A DNA stretch of 64,000 nucleotides, taken from NCBI GenBank assembly GCA_902510415.1, contig CABXBH010000003.1, positions 35,522 through 99,521 on the forward strand, written 5' to 3'. Source of the stretch: an uncultured Bacteroidota bacterium (lineage in GTDB: Bacteria; Bacteroidota; Bacteroidia; Flavobacteriales; Flavobacteriaceae). The notes under the pieces are model-generated. The model was not told the DNA's origin. It was given only the letters and a program-made list of their open reading frames with translations, and did no database searches. Made by a program: the position numbers and the translations under genes. Positions 39,952 through 57,235 of this stretch are shown here, piece after piece; the stretch's first letter is position 1, and each line of letters opens with the position of its first letter.

Positions 39952-41838
39952 CTATTGATTGGTTTGGAAATTATGGATTTGAAGTTGAGAAGCAAAAAAC
40001 TCATAAATCATTACCATTGCTAAAGTGTCAAGTTCACAATATTTTAATAGAGATTGTTTAATTATTTCTCTTTCGGCAGAGGACATTTCAACGTATTGAA
40101 TTTTTGCATAAGCTATTAAAGCATCTCCACCATTATTTAGCTTATTAATCATGCCTATTGGGTTATTAACTTCTGAGTAATCTGGATTTGGTAACGAATC
40201 GTAGGGGTCTATATAGCCCTCCATAATCCATCTATGCTCATTAGAGAAATTTAAAGATGTTAAATTAATTTGGCCAATAGGTTTTGAGTATTTTTTCTTT
40301 ACATATTCACAAATTTTAATAATTGTAGGAAGAACAACTTTTATTGAATTAGAGCCTTTCATATATGGATGGTAAAAATATTTTTTTACTAAATCCCACA
40401 TATCAATCATATCTCTATCACCCTTCCTTACTAACTTATTGTTTTCCTTTTTATTTGTAATAGATATTATAAAATCCATTAATTCCGTTTTATCTACTTC
40501 ATCTGAATCTATTAACTGATCGTATATTGCATTTAAAATTGAATTTTCATGGGTGGCATATTTAAAAATAGATCCTCTATCAGAATCTAAATCCTGTTTT
40601 AATTTTCTGACAAAATCATAGTTTGGGAATTTACCTGGTTCTGCATTTATATACTCTGACTTATGCTCAATTGTTCCATCAGAAAATATTATATGGTGAG
40701 AATACTGAAATGCTATTTGTTCATAAGGATGTCTTCCTTTTGTAAAAGGAAGTGCAGATGTACAAGTTTCAAAATCAATAAAATGCAACGGAAATTTCCA
40801 TTGCAGCATATTTTCTTTTAAATTCTCAACATCTAAATAGAAATCTACTTTTTCATTTAAACTTTGTTGTACTCTTTTCTTGATTTGGAGCCATTGTCTG
40901 TTTTGTACAGTTAGGTGAGTATCACAAGTGTCTTGGAAATCTTGATGATGAAGCTCGTCTAAAAAAAATATATTTGATTTAAATAATTTTTTTTGTTTTT
41001 TGAAATTCCATAGTTCATAAATATTTGGTCGCAGATAATCACTTATATTAAATTGTTGCATCCAACAATCTCTACAGACATGACCATTATAGTGCTCCCA
41101 ATTAATTTCATTTTCATTAACATAAAGTTCTGTAAAATTTTTAACTACCTGATTAAAAGGCAATCCATGAATCTTATGAAAATCTTTTAAGATAATATCA
41201 TTAATTAATTGGGTAAGATTTACTTCCTCCATAATTGGGTCGCCAATTTCTGCTATCGAATTAACTTTTACATCAATTCCCGTTCTCGTATTTTTACTAG
41301 TCATTTGGAATAATTGATTTAAACCATCAACACTAGCTTTCTTTGATTTATCAGCTAACATCAAATATGATTCTACTTCATAATCTGGAAAACATTTTTG
41401 AACAACACTTGTTTGAAAAGCTAAATCAAATAAATAAGGCTTCCATTCACGTCTTATAGATCCATTGGTATTGGTAAAAATTTTTTTCTCTGATGAATCA
41501 AATGATTTTGCCTTAACTTCAATTACCTTTATTAGATTACCAGACTTAACTAAAATGTCTGTTTTAACAAAAAGATTGTCATTTAAAAAAGCTGCTTCAT
41601 ATATTACACATTCACCTTTTTTAAGCAGCTCATTTGTTTTACTAACGGCAAGATGATTAGAGCCATTAATCAAAATACCATCTTTAAAATGAAGTCTAGA
41701 TAATTCCTCAGCCTGAAAACCTCCATCTGCTAATGCAGATAAAAAGTCATTTGATTTATCAGATGATTTGTAATCAGAAGTTAATTTTATTGGGCATTCT
41801 ATCCCCTTTTTAAAATTAGTTTTAGTTAAATATTTCAC
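39952..41838 (-). CDS. DUF2779-like nuclease candidate (PD-(D/E)XK-like N-terminal region plus DEDD/RNase H-like C-terminal domain); likely GTG start at 41838 (track start 41856)
   Basis: KTDILVKSGNLIKVIEVKAKS (D...ExK), HVCRDCWMQQF Cys pair, LHFIDFETCTSALPFTKGRHPYEQIAFQYSHHI (DxE), YATHENSILNAI. Confidence 0.8.
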   Translation of the reverse strand: MKYLTKTNFKKGIECPIKLTSDYKSSDKSNDFLSALADGGFQAEELSRLHFKDGILINGSNHLAVSKTNELLKKGECVIYEAAFLNDNLFVKTDILVKSGNLIKVIEVKAKSFDSSEKKIFTNTNGSIRREWKPYLFDLAFQTSVVQKCFPDYEVESYLMLADKSKKASVDGLNQLFQMTSKNTRTGIDVKVNSIAEIGDPIMEEVNLTQLINDIILKDFHKIHGLPFNQVVKNFTELYVNENEINWEHYNGHVCRDCWMQQFNISDYLRPNIYELWNFKKQKKLFKSNIFFLDELHHQDFQDTCDTHLTVQNRQWLQIKKRVQQSLNEKVDFYLDVENLKENMLQWKFPLHFIDFETCTSALPFTKGRHPYEQIAFQYSHHIIFSDGTIEHKSEYINAEPGKFPNYDFVRKLKQDLDSDRGSIFKYATHENSILNAIYDQLIDSDEVDKTELMDFIISITNKKENNKLVRKGDRDMIDMWDLVKKYFYHPYMKGSNSIKVVLPTIIKICEYVKKKYSKPIGQINLTSLNFSNEHRWIMEGYIDPYDSLPNPDYSEVNNPIGMINKLNNGGDALIAYAKIQYVEMSSAEREIIKQSLLKYCELDTLAMVMIYEFFASQLQIHNFQTNQ

Positions 41839-41987
41839 TCCGATAATTTCTCCCACTCATTCCAAACTTTTCCCAAAGAATTTCTAAATGCCTCAACATT
41901 TACTTGGGTTTCTTCTAGCTCATCTACCAAACCTTCAATTGTATCTAATCTAGATTCAATTGCATATATTAAATCTTCTTTACTCAT
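41835..41987 (-). CDS. 50-aa acidic small protein overlapping the DUF2779 gene start, not in supplied track
   Basis: MSKEDLIYAIESRLDTIEGLVDELEETQVNVEAFRNSLGKVWNEWEKLSE*; GTGA stop/start overlap with downstream gene. Confidence 0.65.
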   Translation of the reverse strand: MSKEDLIYAIESRLDTIEGLVDELEETQVNVEAFRNSLGKVWNEWEKLSE

Positions 41988-47727: not shown

Positions 47728-47994
47728 ATGAGGAATTTAAAAGACGAGAGTAAATTATTTGCTAAATGGGCATCTAAATTAGGTGATAAATACATGGATA
47801 AAGCTATAAACAGATTAATGAATGAAAATAAAGAGCTAGTTTACAATCAAAATGATTTAGCCACTAAACTAGATAAGTACTTTGATTTAGAATTTCAATT
47901 AAGAGAAAAATTATCTCCTGAAAAGGGTAAAAAAAATCTTTCAATTATCAAGAGTTTTAAGAAAGCTCAGAATGAAATATTTAAAAAAAATTAA
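47728..47994 (+). CDS. 88-aa hypothetical helical protein
   Basis: Intact ORF, divergent from STAND ATPase, spaced 2 nt from next gene. Confidence 0.65.
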   Translation: MRNLKDESKLFAKWASKLGDKYMDKAINRLMNENKELVYNQNDLATKLDKYFDLEFQLREKLSPEKGKKNLSIIKSFKKAQNEIFKKN

Positions 47995-47996
47995 AA

Positions 47997-48467
47997 ATGG
48001 AAAATAAAATCAATTTAAAAATTGAAGGAGACCATGAGTTTGGTTTATTTTCAATATTTGTTGTAGAGCTTAAAAAAGATAATACGAGTCTTCCTATTTT
48101 TTTGACAGCAGAGCAAACAAATCTTGGCCTTGAGGACCCTGATGAAGCATTAGAACCTATAATGGAATTGTTGAATATTTTACTTGAAAGTGGATTTTCT
48201 GTACATCAAACAATAGAAATAGTAAATGGAGATGAAAGTGAACAACAGCATGAATTTATAAGCAACTTTGACAATAGAGTTGATGAAACATGGAGTTCTG
48301 AAATTCAAAAAATACATATAAGATTCTCTAATTTAGAAGATCCCCAAAACAGTAATATTGAGCTAGAATCAATTGGGGGGCACAACTTTATAATTTATAC
48401 TGAAAATAATGAAATTTCCCCTGTTGAAATTATGAATAAGTTAAAAGTTATCTTTAATCAAAACTGA
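47997..48467 (+). CDS. 156-aa hypothetical protein
   Basis: Intact ORF in the same operon orientation; no recognised domain. Confidence 0.65.
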   Translation: MENKINLKIEGDHEFGLFSIFVVELKKDNTSLPIFLTAEQTNLGLEDPDEALEPIMELLNILLESGFSVHQTIEIVNGDESEQQHEFISNFDNRVDETWSSEIQKIHIRFSNLEDPQNSNIELESIGGHNFIIYTENNEISPVEIMNKLKVIFNQN

Positions 48468-48514
48468 AATTAAAAAAATATTTATTAAATCGATAGGAAT
48501 ATTGAGGGAAATAC

Positions 48515-48546
48515 TTGATGCTTTACTTCAATTTTCTTATTTTTTG
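48515..48546 (+). promoter_or_regulatory. candidate Bacteroidota sigma-ABfr-like promoter for the MoxR operon
   Basis: TTG - 20 nt - TATTTTTTG, resembling TTG-N19-TAnnTTTG with one extra T; 27 nt upstream of the MoxR start. Confidence 0.3.
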
Positions 48547-48572
48547 ATTATATAAGAATTAAGCAAAAAACA

Positions 48573-49703
48573 ATGTCAATAGAATTTATAGAATTTGGTA
48601 AAAAAGGAAACAGTAGAGAGATTAAGGTAATTTTATCTCATATTTTTGAAAGAAATAATGACTTAAATAAAGAAGATAAAAGAGGTACTGCTGTTTGTAT
48701 TTGGGGGACACACGGATTAGGTAAAACCCAAATCGTTAGAGATTATGCATTAGAAAAAAAATGGAAGTTCTCATATATAGCTCCTGCACAGTTTGAAGAA
48801 ATGGGTGATTTACATGGAATGCCAACTGTTGTAGATCCTGATAAAAGAATTACAGGTGATGAATATACTGTGTATAGTCCTCCAGACTGGGTTCCTAGAG
48901 AAGAAGGGCCTGGTATATTATTATTAGATGATATCAACAGAGCCGATGATAGAATTCTTAGAGGTTGCATGCAATTATTACAAAATTTTGAACTTACATC
49001 ATGGAAATTGCCTCCAAAATGGCAGATTGTTGCTACTGCAAATCCTGAGGGTGGAGATTATTCAGTGACTCCAATGGATGGTGCAATGCTCACAAGGATG
49101 TTACATGCCACGCTAAAGTTTGATGCTAAGATATGGGCTGAATGGGCTTATGCAGCTAACGTTGACGAAAGAGGAATTGCTTTTGTTTTGACTTATCCTG
49201 AACTTGTAAATTCTGACAGAACCACCCCTAGAAGTTTAACTCAGTTTTTTGAACAAATCGCATCTATTGAAAATCTTAAGGATAATTTACAACTTGTTCA
49301 AGCTCTTGCTTTAAGTTCACTTGATGAAGTTACTGTTTCTTCTTTCATAGCTTTTGTGAATGACGAATTAACGCAGCTAATTGATCCTGAAGAAATTTTA
49401 GATGCTGAAGATTTTAAATCTCTCGAAAAGAGAATAAAAGATATTTCAGTGGATGATTCTGGGGCAAAAAGAGTTGATCGTCTTGCAACTATGTGTTCAA
49501 GATTATACTTAAAATTAGCCTCCGATGATTATAAACAAGGAAAAAATCATAGCAAAAATTTAATTAAATTTTTAATGTTTGAAACTATCCCAAATGATTT
49601 ACTTATGAGCCTATATATGGACTTGCAAAAACATGGTAGTGACGAAATAAAAGAAATGACAAGAGACAAAAAATTAGCAAGTAAATTATTATCAACTCTG
49701 TAA
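48573..49703 (+). CDS. MoxR-type AAA ATPase
   Basis: Walker A WGTHGLGKTQIV; Walker B GILLLDDINRADDRILRGCMQLLQNF; QIVATANPEGGDYSVTPMDGAMLTRM. Confidence 0.92.
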   Translation: MSIEFIEFGKKGNSREIKVILSHIFERNNDLNKEDKRGTAVCIWGTHGLGKTQIVRDYALEKKWKFSYIAPAQFEEMGDLHGMPTVVDPDKRITGDEYTVYSPPDWVPREEGPGILLLDDINRADDRILRGCMQLLQNFELTSWKLPPKWQIVATANPEGGDYSVTPMDGAMLTRMLHATLKFDAKIWAEWAYAANVDERGIAFVLTYPELVNSDRTTPRSLTQFFEQIASIENLKDNLQLVQALALSSLDEVTVSSFIAFVNDELTQLIDPEEILDAEDFKSLEKRIKDISVDDSGAKRVDRLATMCSRLYLKLASDDYKQGKNHSKNLIKFLMFETIPNDLLMSLYMDLQKHGSDEIKEMTRDKKLASKLLSTL

Positions 49704-49713
49704 ATAAAATGTT

Positions 49714-52335
49714 ATGCTTAGCAAAGAGGATAAACAAAATGTATCTAAAATAAAGAAACTCATCAGAACCAGAGATTTTGAAAAAATTGAAATGGGGATT
49801 GAATTAGTTAGATCAGTGAATAATCCCAAGATATTTGATGAGTTGTTAGGTAATGTTGAATATAAATTTGACCAGTGGTCAGGATCTTTCTCACACGACT
49901 GGAAAGGAGCGGGTCCGGATGAACATTATTTTCAAACTGCAATACTTGGTTTATTAAATTTTTCACCAAAGGGCTCAAAAGGATCTGTAATTAGAGATTC
50001 CGTTAAAATCCTTAAAATAAGGGGTGAAATTACAAGCGGTTATTCTCACTTAAGGTCAAAGGTATTCCTCAAATATTTATCAAATTTCTCCAATCTTAAA
50101 ATCTTGAGAGTTGATAATTATAAAGAAATAATTGGATTTGAAGAAATTTATGATTTACCGCTTGAAGGTCTTGAACTAGATCGAGGTTATTCTCTACCAA
50201 ATCATGAAGAGAAATGGGGTTTTAAAAAACTTAAAAGAATATTTTTTACTATGCCAGAATCCAATCCATACAGATATGCTGACGATCTTGATGAAAAAAC
50301 TGAAGCTAAAAAAATACTAGGATTAGACTTTTTATCTAATTTAATTAGCCTGGAAACAGTTAAAGTAACAAGGCACGGCGATACTAATTTTTCAATTAAG
50401 GGATTGAGTTTTTTGAAGAATTTAAAATTTCTCTATACCTATAATTTAGGCATTGATAATGTCAATGATTTAAACACTCTGGAAAATTTAAATTATGTGA
50501 AATTAAATGAAAAATATCTTACTGATATATCAGGACTAAATTCATCTGCTAATTTAGAGTTTGTTGATTTAAGTAGCTCAGATAATTTATCCGATATTAG
50601 CCCATTAAGTAAATTGAAAAATATCAAATTAATTGATGTTTCAAGTACGGGAATCATATCCTTAAAGGGATTAGAAAACTCCGCTAACCTTCACGGAGTA
50701 AATATTTCAAGAAGTCCTATAAAAAATCTAGATGGTCTACTTAATGCAAAAAATCTTTATTGTGTTAATGCTAGTACTTGTAAAGAATTAGAGAACATTG
50801 AGGGAATAAAGAATTCCATAAAATTAAAAGAAATACTCTTGGATAATTGCTCTTCACTTTTGAGTCTGAGCGGTATAGAAAACTGTGGAGATTTAAGATT
50901 AATAAACCTTTCCAAAAGTGGAATTTCAAATTTAGATTCTTTAATTAATTGTAAAAATATATTTAAGAATAGTAAAACAAAATGGGATGAAGAAACAACG
51001 GAGTGGAGTGGCAATACTGGCTCTCAAGAAAATCCTTTTTGGGGTATAACAGAGGAAGTTAGTAAAGTTGGATATGGTAATCTTTATCAAGCAAAATATA
51101 TTGGCGAAAAATGTAGGGAATATTACAGTGACAGGGGTTGGAGTGCGCCAACCTTAAATGAGTTTGTGATTACAGAGTGTCCAAATCTTGAGTCGGTTGA
51201 AGGGTTAAAAAATTCAGGAATTCAATTACTTGTAATTAATAATTGTCCAAATATTAAAAAGATTGACTATCTGTCTGAATTTTCACTTTTACAATGCTGT
51301 GATTTCACAGATTGTGCAAATCTTGAAAGTGTTGAAAGCTTGTCCAATCTAAATCTGATGGATCGATTAATTTTAAAGAAGTGCTATAAAGTAAAACCAA
51401 AGCCAAGATTCTTATTAATGGATTCTTTTGAAAAAATTAACGAGTATTTATCAAAATTTAAAAAAAATGTTTCAGAAGTTAAGTTAGATTCTTCAGAAAA
51501 AGTAACATCAAAGAAACTAGAAAAATTACTGCTTTCTAATGATTACAGTAATATAGAATTAGGCTTAGAATTGGCAAATTCTATATCAAACAAAGACATC
51601 TTTGATTTCTTGCTTGAGGATGTAAAATTTTTAAACAATAAAATCATACCTAATGGCAAATTTTTGGGTAATAAAAAAACGAAAGAGTTTAGAGATTTTG
51701 CTCTTGAAGGATTAATTTCTATTGCGCCGGATTCATGTAGTATTGCGAAGAAAATCAAACAGAGTTTCAAGGTAAAGGTTTTAAATGGATCTAATTTAAA
51801 TTCACTTTTATCAGTTTCTGGATTTAGTAATTTAGAGGAGCTTACAATTCATGATACAAACATATCCACTGTTTCAGACTTATCTAGATTAAAAAAATTA
51901 AAAAAATTATTATTTATTGATAATCCTGAATTAAAAAATCTTTCAGGTATTAAAGGTTTAGATAATTTAGAATATTTAGGTATTAAAAATTGCAAAGGAT
52001 TATCAGATTTAAGTCATATTGCCGGATTTGAAAAATTATTAGGCATTCAAGTCAATTTTTCTGGTATTACTTCAACGAAAGGATTAGAAAATCTTACGCT
52101 ACTAAAAAATATAAATTTAAATAATAATACTCAGCTAAAAGAAATTGATGAACTAGGTAAAATTAATTCATTAGAAATAGTAACAATTAGTGAATGTCAA
52201 AATATTAAAAGCTTAGATGCACTTACAAAACTCCCAAATCTAACTTTTTTAAGAGTTGACAAGCATAGTTTAAAAAATATAGAAGGCATTCAATCATTAA
52301 TTAAACCTCTTATTCAAGGTTTAAGAAAAGAGTAA
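49714..52335 (+). CDS. 873-aa leucine-rich-repeat protein with internally duplicated helical + LRR architecture
   Basis: Many LRR-type units (L-x-x-L-x-I/L-x-x-N/C) and two copies of a helical module (LIRTRDFEKIEMGIELVRSVNNPKIFDELLGNV; LLLSNDYSNIELGLELANSISNKDIFDFLLEDV). Confidence 0.88.
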   Translation: MLSKEDKQNVSKIKKLIRTRDFEKIEMGIELVRSVNNPKIFDELLGNVEYKFDQWSGSFSHDWKGAGPDEHYFQTAILGLLNFSPKGSKGSVIRDSVKILKIRGEITSGYSHLRSKVFLKYLSNFSNLKILRVDNYKEIIGFEEIYDLPLEGLELDRGYSLPNHEEKWGFKKLKRIFFTMPESNPYRYADDLDEKTEAKKILGLDFLSNLISLETVKVTRHGDTNFSIKGLSFLKNLKFLYTYNLGIDNVNDLNTLENLNYVKLNEKYLTDISGLNSSANLEFVDLSSSDNLSDISPLSKLKNIKLIDVSSTGIISLKGLENSANLHGVNISRSPIKNLDGLLNAKNLYCVNASTCKELENIEGIKNSIKLKEILLDNCSSLLSLSGIENCGDLRLINLSKSGISNLDSLINCKNIFKNSKTKWDEETTEWSGNTGSQENPFWGITEEVSKVGYGNLYQAKYIGEKCREYYSDRGWSAPTLNEFVITECPNLESVEGLKNSGIQLLVINNCPNIKKIDYLSEFSLLQCCDFTDCANLESVESLSNLNLMDRLILKKCYKVKPKPRFLLMDSFEKINEYLSKFKKNVSEVKLDSSEKVTSKKLEKLLLSNDYSNIELGLELANSISNKDIFDFLLEDVKFLNNKIIPNGKFLGNKKTKEFRDFALEGLISIAPDSCSIAKKIKQSFKVKVLNGSNLNSLLSVSGFSNLEELTIHDTNISTVSDLSRLKKLKKLLFIDNPELKNLSGIKGLDNLEYLGIKNCKGLSDLSHIAGFEKLLGIQVNFSGITSTKGLENLTLLKNINLNNNTQLKEIDELGKINSLEIVTISECQNIKSLDALTKLPNLTFLRVDKHSLKNIEGIQSLIKPLIQGLRKE

Positions 52336-52340
52336 ATTAC

Positions 52341-53516
52341 GTGAGTAAAGACATTAGCGAGGAAATATCAAGGTGTATAATTAAGATGCTATTAAAAGAG
52401 CCTTTTTATGCACACTTTTTAAGTGGTATTATTAGAGAAGTTACTGACAAAGTTCCTACAGCTGCTGTTGGATTTAAATCTGGAAAAATTGCCTTGTATG
52501 TTAATGAAAATTTCTTTCTAAAAGAATTAAGATCAATGACCGAACGAGTTGCTGTCATTAAGCACGAAACGCTACATATAATATTTAAGCATTTATTTAG
52601 AATGAAGACCAAGGACTACGATAATAAGCTTTTTAATATTGCTGCTGACCTTGTAGTTAATCAATTAATTGCACCCTGGAAACTGCCTGATTCAGCAGTA
52701 ACCTTGGAAACATTTCCAGAGTTAAAACTACCACGAGATAAATCAGTTGAGTGGTATTATGAAAATTTAAAAAAAACTGCTTCTAAAGACAAGGAATATA
52801 AAAAAAGGTTGCAAGAAATTTTTGATCAAGATACACACAGTGACCATAGAATGTGGGGGGAGAATGAAAACTTTAGCATGGAAGTCGTGGAAACCGAAGT
52901 GGATAGAATGATTATTCAAGCAAAGGATCGAACACCCGTAAAAGATCATGGGACAATTCCATTAGGAATCCAATCACTGATAAAAAATATAATCGAAAAA
53001 AGAAATCCTCAAATAAATTGGAAAAGAGCGTTAAAGATTTTTTCATCAACAAGTAGAAAAACCCGAGTTTATCATACTTTGAAAAGGGTTAGTAAAAGGT
53101 TTGGAACTCGTCCTGGAATAAAAATAAAAAGATTTCAAAAACTTGCCGTTGCAATTGATACCTCAGGTTCTATTAATATAGATGATTTTAATGATTTTTT
53201 TGGCGAAATACATAGTATGTGGAGATTCGGCGCTGAAATTGATGTTCTTGAATGTGATGCTGCAATTCAAAAAAAGTATTCTTACAGAGGTCGCATTCCG
53301 GAATTCATTCACGGAGGCGGAGGAACTTCTTTTGATCCAGTTTTTGAACACATAAAATCAAACCGATTTGAAAGATATGACGGTTGTATCTATTTAACTG
53401 ATGGTTATGCGCCAGAACCAACTATCAAGCCGCCGTGTAAAGTTTTTTGGTGTATAACAAAAGATGGTAAAATAGGACCCCATCTTAAATTTGGAAGAGT
53501 TGTTAAAATGAAATAA
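52341..53516 (+). CDS. DUF2201-type putative metallopeptidase fused to a VWA-like domain
   Basis: AVIKHETLHIIFKH (HExxH); AIDTSGSI MIDAS, HGGGGTSFDP, YLTDGYAPEP. Confidence 0.92.
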   Translation: MSKDISEEISRCIIKMLLKEPFYAHFLSGIIREVTDKVPTAAVGFKSGKIALYVNENFFLKELRSMTERVAVIKHETLHIIFKHLFRMKTKDYDNKLFNIAADLVVNQLIAPWKLPDSAVTLETFPELKLPRDKSVEWYYENLKKTASKDKEYKKRLQEIFDQDTHSDHRMWGENENFSMEVVETEVDRMIIQAKDRTPVKDHGTIPLGIQSLIKNIIEKRNPQINWKRALKIFSSTSRKTRVYHTLKRVSKRFGTRPGIKIKRFQKLAVAIDTSGSINIDDFNDFFGEIHSMWRFGAEIDVLECDAAIQKKYSYRGRIPEFIHGGGGTSFDPVFEHIKSNRFERYDGCIYLTDGYAPEPTIKPPCKVFWCITKDGKIGPHLKFGRVVKMK

Positions 53517-53532
53517 TTAAGAAGTGATTAAT

Positions 53533-53670
53533 TTATATACTTCTAAATCTTCTTGCACCAGTCCAAGCTACCTTTTTAGTTCTTCCTAAATATGATTTAG
53601 CTTCTAGTCTATCATTAAATTCATTTCTTGCTGAATTTAATTGAGTGTTTCCGTTATCTTGATTTTTCAT
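53533..53670 (-). CDS. 45-aa basic small protein, convergent with the VWA gene (not in track)
   Basis: MKNQDNGNTQLNSARNEFNDRLEAKSYLGRTKKVAWTGARRFRSI*. Confidence 0.5.
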   Translation of the reverse strand: MKNQDNGNTQLNSARNEFNDRLEAKSYLGRTKKVAWTGARRFRSI

Positions 53671-56667: not shown

Positions 56668-57051
56668 TTATTCCATCGCTCTTATAACTGGAGCTCCCAG
56701 AATTCCTGAAACACAATATTCATTAGTAAGTGCAACTAGTTCTGAAAACATTGATTCTCTCTGCTGACCTAAATTCATATGTGCTCCAGCTCCTTCAGGG
56801 CCATTATAAATTTCCGTTATACCATATAGCGTATTTCCTGTTTCACCGCTTTCAGGGTCTAACGGATTATTTAATTCTGGGGATTTTAGTACTGCATAAC
56901 ACAATATTATCGGTTCAACATCACCTTCAATATGATGAGTTTCCCTCATAAATTTTTCATGTGTTTCTAAAAAAGATTCCATTCTTAGAGTATCATTATT
57001 AGGTACTACAAAAGCTACGTGAAAGCCGATACATCCTGTTTTAATTTTCAT
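56668..57051 (-). CDS. hypothetical protein (possible dimeric alpha/beta-barrel)
   Basis: MKIKTGCIGFHVAFVVPNNDTLRMESFLETHEKFM...; start at 57051. Confidence 0.5.
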   Translation of the reverse strand: MKIKTGCIGFHVAFVVPNNDTLRMESFLETHEKFMRETHHIEGDVEPIILCYAVLKSPELNNPLDPESGETGNTLYGITEIYNGPEGAGAHMNLGQQRESMFSELVALTNEYCVSGILGAPVIRAME

Positions 57052-57235
57052 AATTATAATTTTTAACATTAATATCTACAATTTACAATAATTTTTAGGC
57101 TTCATTTTCAGAATCTTTTATAAACTTTTGGAACTCTGTGGGATCTTTTAAGAAAATAATTACTAGATTTCATATTAGTCAATCTAATTTAACATAACGA
57201 AAATCTTTTACTTATTTAAAAATCATACGTAAATA

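What the first reader, a model, noticed from the sequence alone, without database searches (positions are those of the whole stretch)
47728..53670. MoxR ATPase - duplicated LRR protein - DUF2201/VWA operon with small accessory ORFs: candidate undescribed conflict/chaperone system
Seen: MoxR (48573-49703), LRR (49714-52335) and metallopeptidase/VWA (52341-53516) are separated by only 10 and 5 nt, so they are almost certainly co-transcribed. Two unknown small proteins sit just upstream (47728, 47997) and a 45-aa basic protein is convergent at the end. Established: MoxR ATPases typically act with VWA/MIDAS proteins as a remodelling pair, and MoxR-vWA ternary systems have been proposed as NTP-dependent conflict systems by comparative genomics. 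Inference: the LRR protein is the variable third component or target sensor, a combination I do not recognise as characterised.
Basis: partly seen in the sequence, partly recalled or inferred. Interest (0 to 1): 0.85.

Follow-up and report, generated by a model that had tools for sequence, protein, structure and literature searches.

The report
MoxR–LRR–zincin/VWA operon with variable partners
A rare, mobile-looking bacterial gene set joins an ATP-driven protein-remodelling motor, a fast-changing leucine-rich-repeat protein and a peptidase/VWA protein; the same trio recurs in other genomes beside immune-type or DNA-break-sensing genes, so it is probably an undescribed relative of known MoxR–VWA conflict systems, although nothing has been tested in the laboratory.

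Summary
The three core genes and their 10- and 5-nt gaps are real; the LRR protein is an internal duplication. The order MoxR–LRR–DUF2201/VWA recurs in three other marine flavobacterial genomes, and four further loci (one a phage contig) keep an LRR gene upstream of the pair. They fall in one supported clade; distant phage and plasmid copies lack the LRR. The LRR diverges about three times faster than its partners. The locus is rare (1 of 21 genus genomes, 2 of 398 order genomes) and strain-specific, so not housekeeping. A 28-bp element 33 nt before MoxR, unique in the genome and conserved in close relatives, marks the operon start; the two small upstream ORFs lie outside it and are not conserved. 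Partners vary: a divergent STAND ATPase (window, L005), a SAM–NACHT–TPR protein resembling Avs2 (L025), or BRCT, WGR and DNA-ligase-like proteins. The MoxR + metallopeptidase-VWA pair is published from jumbo phages; the LRR form was not found in the literature searched. Best reading: a new variant of MoxR–VWA ternary conflict systems with an LRR recognition subunit. DNA-break proteolysis is the main rival. Function is inferred, not shown.

The parts
48512..48539 (+). Conserved upstream element TACTTGATGNTTTACNTCAATTTTCTTA, 33 nt before the MoxR start; probable promoter or operator of the operon
   Evidence: Same element upstream of MoxR in L004 and L006, more diverged in L005; 0 expected in shuffles of the window; single copy in the genome, 0 for the reversed control
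48573..49703 (+). MoxR-type AAA+ ATPase, 376 aa; Walker A GTHGLGKT (48705-48728), Walker B LLDDINR
   Evidence: PF07728 above cut-off; phrog_1297 E 2.5e-43; motifs; nearest solved relatives are Midasin
49714..52335 (+). Duplicated LRR protein, 873 aa: two copies of helical cap plus LRR solenoid; caps at about 49714-50007 and 51481-51759
   Evidence: LRR families in Pfam; halves align at 30% identity, E 1e-8; AlphaFold2 model, mean pLDDT 78.9; Foldseek to internalin A and TLRs
51373..51468 (+). Linker between the two LRR halves (residues 554-585), the most conserved 32-aa stretch of the LRR protein, mostly low-confidence in the model; candidate binding or cleavage segment (inference)
   Evidence: 78% invariant in four orthologues; low pLDDT at 541-557 and 562-588
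52341..53516 (+). DUF2201 protein, 391 aa: zincin-like domain with HETLH (52563-52577) and C-terminal VWA domain with MIDAS DTSGS (53157-53171)
   Evidence: PF13203 and PF09967 above cut-off; phrog_1314 E 2.5e-65; motifs; model with HETLH inside a helix
42835..47631 (-). Divergent STAND-type ATPase, 1598 aa, with hydrophobic segments (about residues 269-508), AAA_16 domain and weak C-terminal TPR signal; probable partner
   Evidence: PF13191 above cut-off; 39% identical homologue in the same divergent position in L005; no match at E <= 1e-40 in 297 other Flavobacteriales genomes; hydrophobic segments

Best explanation
This is a patchily distributed MoxR–VWA ternary system whose third component is an LRR protein. 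Shown: a three-gene operon with its own conserved upstream element; recurrence of an LRR gene with this MoxR–VWA clade; a faster-evolving LRR; intact ATPase, MIDAS and HEXXH motifs; recurring STAND-type or DNA-break-binding partners. Inferred: the LRR solenoids recognise an invader-derived or stress-derived protein; the VWA MIDAS captures a peptide of the LRR protein or of its ligand; the MoxR ring uses ATP to remodel the complex; this frees the zincin domain and/or the STAND partner to act. The partner gene (STAND here; NACHT, or BRCT/WGR/ligase elsewhere) sets the input or output. Most likely role: defence against phages or other invaders.
For: Synteny in L004, L005, L006 and LRR linkage in L012, L022, L025 and phage contig L023. 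Supported clade. Rarity and strain-specific location. LRR dN/dS 0.13-0.33 against 0.04-0.11 for MoxR and VWA. STAND gene in the same divergent position in window and L005, absent from 297 other genomes. SAM–NACHT–TPR protein in the L025 operon with an Avs2-like NTPase region, E 3e-12. L022 has a DNA phosphorothioation-associated methyltransferase next door and L012 an OLD/GajA-like ATPase about 7 kb away. Precedent: MoxR–vWA ternary conflict systems (PMC7159879).
Against: No experiment. No PADLOC match for the core. BRCT, WGR and ligase-like partners suggest DNA repair as easily as defence. All dN/dS values are below 1, and dS above 1 makes them rough. HEXXH is HQILH in L012, so the peptidase is not needed everywhere. 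The pair also occurs alone in many phages, where a virion-assembly role was proposed (PMC7824862).
Confidence: 0.5

Rival explanations
1. A DNA-break response machine: BRCT and WGR domains mark nicked or broken DNA, the LRR protein is a scaffold, MoxR–VWA remodels or extracts DNA-bound proteins, the zincin cleaves them and a ligase-like enzyme seals the DNA.
For: BRCT protein beside MoxR and ATP-dependent DNA-ligase-like gene downstream in L006, with the same gene order in L004; WGR and BRCT domains in the L012 LRR protein; WGR ORF in L022. A weak Foldseek match of the VWA-protein model to a structure of protease-dependent DNA-protein crosslink repair (6mdw, E 0.095).
Against: None of these partners lies in the window locus or was seen in the L005 stretch. 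STAND/NACHT partners, rarity and fast LRR evolution fit repair less well. The 6mdw match is not significant.
Confidence: 0.25
2. A phage-derived module kept by the bacterium, with the pair still serving (or interfering with) virion assembly, as proposed for the jumbo-phage MoxR + metallopeptidase-vWA pair.
For: 316 phage records with the VWA protein and 160 with MoxR; Bacteroidota-type phage contigs L023, L024, L037 nest with the bacterial clade at support 100.
Against: No phage structural genes recognised around the locus; the LRR is present in all seven non-phage loci of the clade and in only one phage contig.
Confidence: 0.12
3. A dedicated chaperone for assembling a cellular complex, like RavA–ViaA or CoxD–CoxE, with the LRR protein as adaptor or client.
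For: Known MoxR–VWA pairs act as assembly factors (PMC7159879).
Against: Strain-specific distribution, fast LRR evolution and exchange of neighbouring genes are unusual for a dedicated assembly factor.
Confidence: 0.1

Closest known systems
MoxR + metallopeptidase-vWA pair of group 2.2 jumbo phages (Iyer et al. 2021, PMC7824862); PHROG families phrog_1297 and phrog_1314
   Same: Same two proteins: MoxR ATPase and a VWA protein with N-terminal metallopeptidase domain; both window proteins match the PHROG families
   Different: Window pair is in a bacterial genome with an LRR gene between the two and a STAND partner; most phage copies have no LRR
MoxR–vWA ternary conflict systems: VMAP, iSTAND, FtsH and beta-propeller types (Kaur et al. 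2020, PMC7159879), iSTAND2 and TERNS3 (PMC8195603)
   Same: MoxR–VWA core plus a third, faster-evolving protein, and links to STAND-type NTPases
   Different: Third component is an LRR protein; the VWA protein carries an N-terminal zincin and no C-terminal effector domain; the linked STAND has an ATPase-type domain and is not an inactive iSTAND by motif
Avs and other STAND/NACHT immune receptors
   Same: L025 operon encodes a NACHT-type NTPase with TPRs matching Avs2 in its NTPase region
   Different: Avs proteins are single-chain sensors; here LRR, NTPase and MoxR–VWA are separate chains, and the window STAND itself has no PADLOC match
RavA–ViaA and CoxD–CoxE
   Same: AAA+ motor plus MIDAS co-chaperone
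   Different: No LRR or zincin partner is described for these in the text read

Membership tests
MoxR AAA+ ATPases | AAA_5/AAA_3-type domain with Walker A and B motifs | tested here: met
   PF07728 23.7 bits, cut-off 22; GTHGLGKT and LLDDINR
DUF2201 (PF13203 + PF09967) | N-terminal putative metallopeptidase domain and C-terminal VWA-like domain | tested here: met
   Both above cut-off; HETLH and DTSGS motifs
DUF2201 (PF13203 + PF09967) | Peptidase activity | not testable with these tools
   Motif intact in the window but HQILH in L012
[quoted passage not shown] 2020) | MoxR and VWA genes coupled in one neighbourhood | tested here: met
[quoted passage not shown] 2020) | Third component is VMAP, iSTAND, FtsH or a beta-propeller protein | tested here: not met
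   Third gene gives LRR families only in Pfam and NCBIfam; none of those domains was reported. Profile-profile comparison was not possible
[quoted passage not shown]
   PF09967 ends at residue 390 of 391
Jumbo-phage MoxR + metallopeptidase-VWA pair | Homologous MoxR and zincin-VWA proteins side by side | tested here: met
   phrog_1297 and phrog_1314; phage records. In the window the LRR gene lies between the two
Jumbo-phage MoxR + metallopeptidase-VWA pair | Phage genome context | tested here: not met
   Flanks are bacterial genes, one shared by 18 of 21 genus genomes
Known anti-phage defence systems (PADLOC) | Match to a PADLOC-DB model | tested here: not met
   None of seven window proteins matches

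The most novel reading that the evidence does not exclude
A so far undescribed class of MoxR–VWA immune system in Bacteroidota and their phages, in which an LRR receptor on a separate chain is coupled by an ATP-driven zincin/VWA machine to interchangeable STAND or DNA-break-sensing modules: a split bacterial analogue of NLR receptors.
Probability: 0.4. Interest if true: 0.8.

Novelty: new variant of a known kind. Interest (0 to 1): 0.6.

Why it matters
MoxR–VWA pairs are widespread, but in the predicted conflict systems neither the trigger nor the output has been shown in the papers read. An operon with a dedicated, fast-evolving LRR partner gives a compact three-protein set in which recognition, ATP-driven remodelling and a possible peptidase can be separated by mutation. 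It also links STAND receptors and BRCT/WGR/ligase proteins to one motor, and shows that a phage pair and a bacterial system are close relatives, which bears on exchange between defence and counter-defence.

Tried and rejected
(1) Small ORFs as parts: rejected. (2) Housekeeping locus: rejected. (3) Prophage: no phage structural genes recognised nearby, but the flanks were not scanned exhaustively. (4) A clean empty site: not found. The neighbouring monooxygenase gene is present in 17 of 20 genus relatives and the 133-aa gene (56668-57069) lies close to it in several, but in the opposite relative orientation, so only a strain-specific region can be claimed. (5) RNA families and tRNA anchors: none near the locus. 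(6) Promoter and terminator scans were uninformative. (7) Viral-contig searches with the VWA protein alone and with the STAND protein found no relative. (9) Foldseek with the VWA-protein model gave no match at E <= 0.001. (10) Solved structures: MoxR hits only Midasin, VWA protein none. (11) Literature searches for MoxR with DUF2201, WGR/BRCT or LRR found no description of this set; most subscription journals are not in that library.

Full report
Observation. Pfam assigns AAA_5 to the 376-aa protein, LRR families to the 873-aa protein and both DUF2201 domains to the 391-aa protein, all above cut-off. The gaps are 10 and 5 nt. The LRR protein is an internal duplication; its model (mean pLDDT 78.9) shows two helical caps, each followed by a solenoid. 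Its best structural matches are internalin A, TLRs and plant receptor kinases, which says LRR fold and no more.

Recurrence. The genome-collection scan found three close relatives of the VWA protein. In all three (L004 and L006, single-cell genomes; L005, a MAG) the order MoxR–LRR–VWA is kept. Identities to the window are 80-90% for MoxR, 74-91% for VWA and 47-77% for LRR. Three further loci keep an LRR gene upstream of an adjacent MoxR–VWA pair: L012 (LRR proteins, one with WGR and BRCT domains, with a 317-aa gene in between), L022 (an IMG/VR contig) and L025. In the phage contig L023 a 186-aa LRR protein sits just before VWA–MoxR. Phage contigs L024, L037 and L043-L059 and the phage and plasmid records examined show no LRR gene by profile and motif search. 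A tree of the concatenated pair puts the window with L004, L005, L006, L022 and L025 at support 99, and adds L012 and phage contigs L023, L024 and L037 at 100.

Rarity. DUF2201 relatives occur in 1 of 21 genomes of the genus, 2 of 398 of the order, 5 of 396 of the phylum and 3 of 250 of the L012 genus. Genus genomes are incomplete, so single absences are weak, but 299 of the order genomes were at least 90% complete and one of them had a hit. The neighbouring monooxygenase gene is shared by 18 of 21 genus genomes, the window's own included. The genes from 38.9 kb rightwards, apart from the 133-aa gene and one partial 51% match, were not found within the stretch examined in 13 relatives.

Rates. 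Nei-Gojobori dN/dS is 0.13-0.33 for the LRR against 0.04-0.08 for MoxR and 0.04-0.11 for VWA. All are below 1, and dS above 1 makes them rough; the contrast, not the values, is the result. In the region table the printed L005 and L006 columns are swapped. The linker 554-585 is the most conserved stretch of the LRR protein.

Operon start. A 28-bp element 33 nt before MoxR recurs upstream of MoxR in L004 and L006 and, more diverged, in L005. It is not expected by chance in the window and is unique in the genome. It lies between the 156-aa ORF and MoxR. Together with the absence of both small ORFs from the syntenic loci and of any homologue of the 156-aa ORF in 247 genomes, this removes them from the system.

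Partners. The 1598-aa divergent protein is a STAND-type ATPase with hydrophobic segments at about residues 269-508. A 39% identical homologue, cut by the contig end, is in the same divergent position in L005; there is no match at E <= 1e-40 in 297 other Flavobacteriales genomes. L025 instead has a SAM–NACHT–TPR protein upstream of its LRR gene, and its NTPase region matches Avs2; BLASTP finds no similarity between it and the window STAND. L004 and L006 have a divergent BRCT protein and a downstream set that, in L006 by profile search, ends in an ATP-dependent DNA-ligase-like protein; L004 has the same gene order. L022 has a WGR ORF and, convergent to the VWA gene, a DNA phosphorothioation-associated methyltransferase (TIGR04096, E 5e-174).

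Known relatives. The pair matches phrog_1297 and phrog_1314 and hundreds of phage records. Iyer et al. 2021 describe a MoxR + metallopeptidase-vWA pair in group 2.2 jumbo phages and propose a role in virion assembly (PMC7824862). Kaur et al. 2020 define four MoxR–vWA ternary systems, none with an LRR third component in the parts read (PMC7159879); a later paper adds iSTAND2 and TERNS3 (PMC8195603). No window protein tested matches PADLOC.

Interpretation. Shown: a rare, strain-specific three-gene core with a fast-evolving LRR and exchangeable partners. The step to a defence role rests on the STAND links, on the precedent of Kaur et al. and on the neighbourhoods of L022 and L012. The BRCT, WGR and ligase-like partners keep a DNA-break role open. 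Catalysis by the zincin domain is plausible from HETLH and its place in a helix of the model, but the Glu is Gln in L012, so it may be dispensable in part of the clade.

Noticed in passing
PHROG family phrog_1314; phage records: The family is named 'HNH endonuclease' and the name has spread to many phage records, but the matching protein carries PF13203 + PF09967 (metallopeptidase-like + VWA) and no HNH domain was reported for it. Probably a misannotation.
   Followed up: partly
G000:C12:5372-6187 (L011): A 271-aa LRR protein whose N-terminus matches the cap domain of the window LRR protein lies directly downstream of an OmpA-like gene set elsewhere in the genome.
   Followed up: partly
window 39952-41856 (-) and L033: A DUF2779 gene lies near the locus in the window and another near the MoxR–VWA genes on an Arcobacter plasmid; possibly coincidence.
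   Followed up: no
L012:2319-5789: The WGR–TPR–LRR–BRCT protein matches NCBIfam NF047464 (LIC_11051 family, named fibronectin-binding protein) over several stretches, though below its cut-off; the WGR ORF of L022 does too.
   Followed up: no
window 56668-57069 (-): A 133-aa gene lies within about 0.1-0.8 kb of the monooxygenase gene in several genus relatives, but about 18 kb away and in the other relative orientation in the window, suggesting a rearrangement around the strain-specific region.
   Followed up: partly
VWA protein model: A weak Foldseek match (E 0.095) to 6mdw, a structure titled 'Mechanism of protease dependent DPC repair'. Not significant, but of interest next to the BRCT, WGR and ligase partners.
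   Followed up: no
L025:9518-13957: Two related proteins of about 730-750 aa with hydrophobic N-terminal halves precede the NACHT gene of the L025 operon; no PADLOC match.
   Followed up: no
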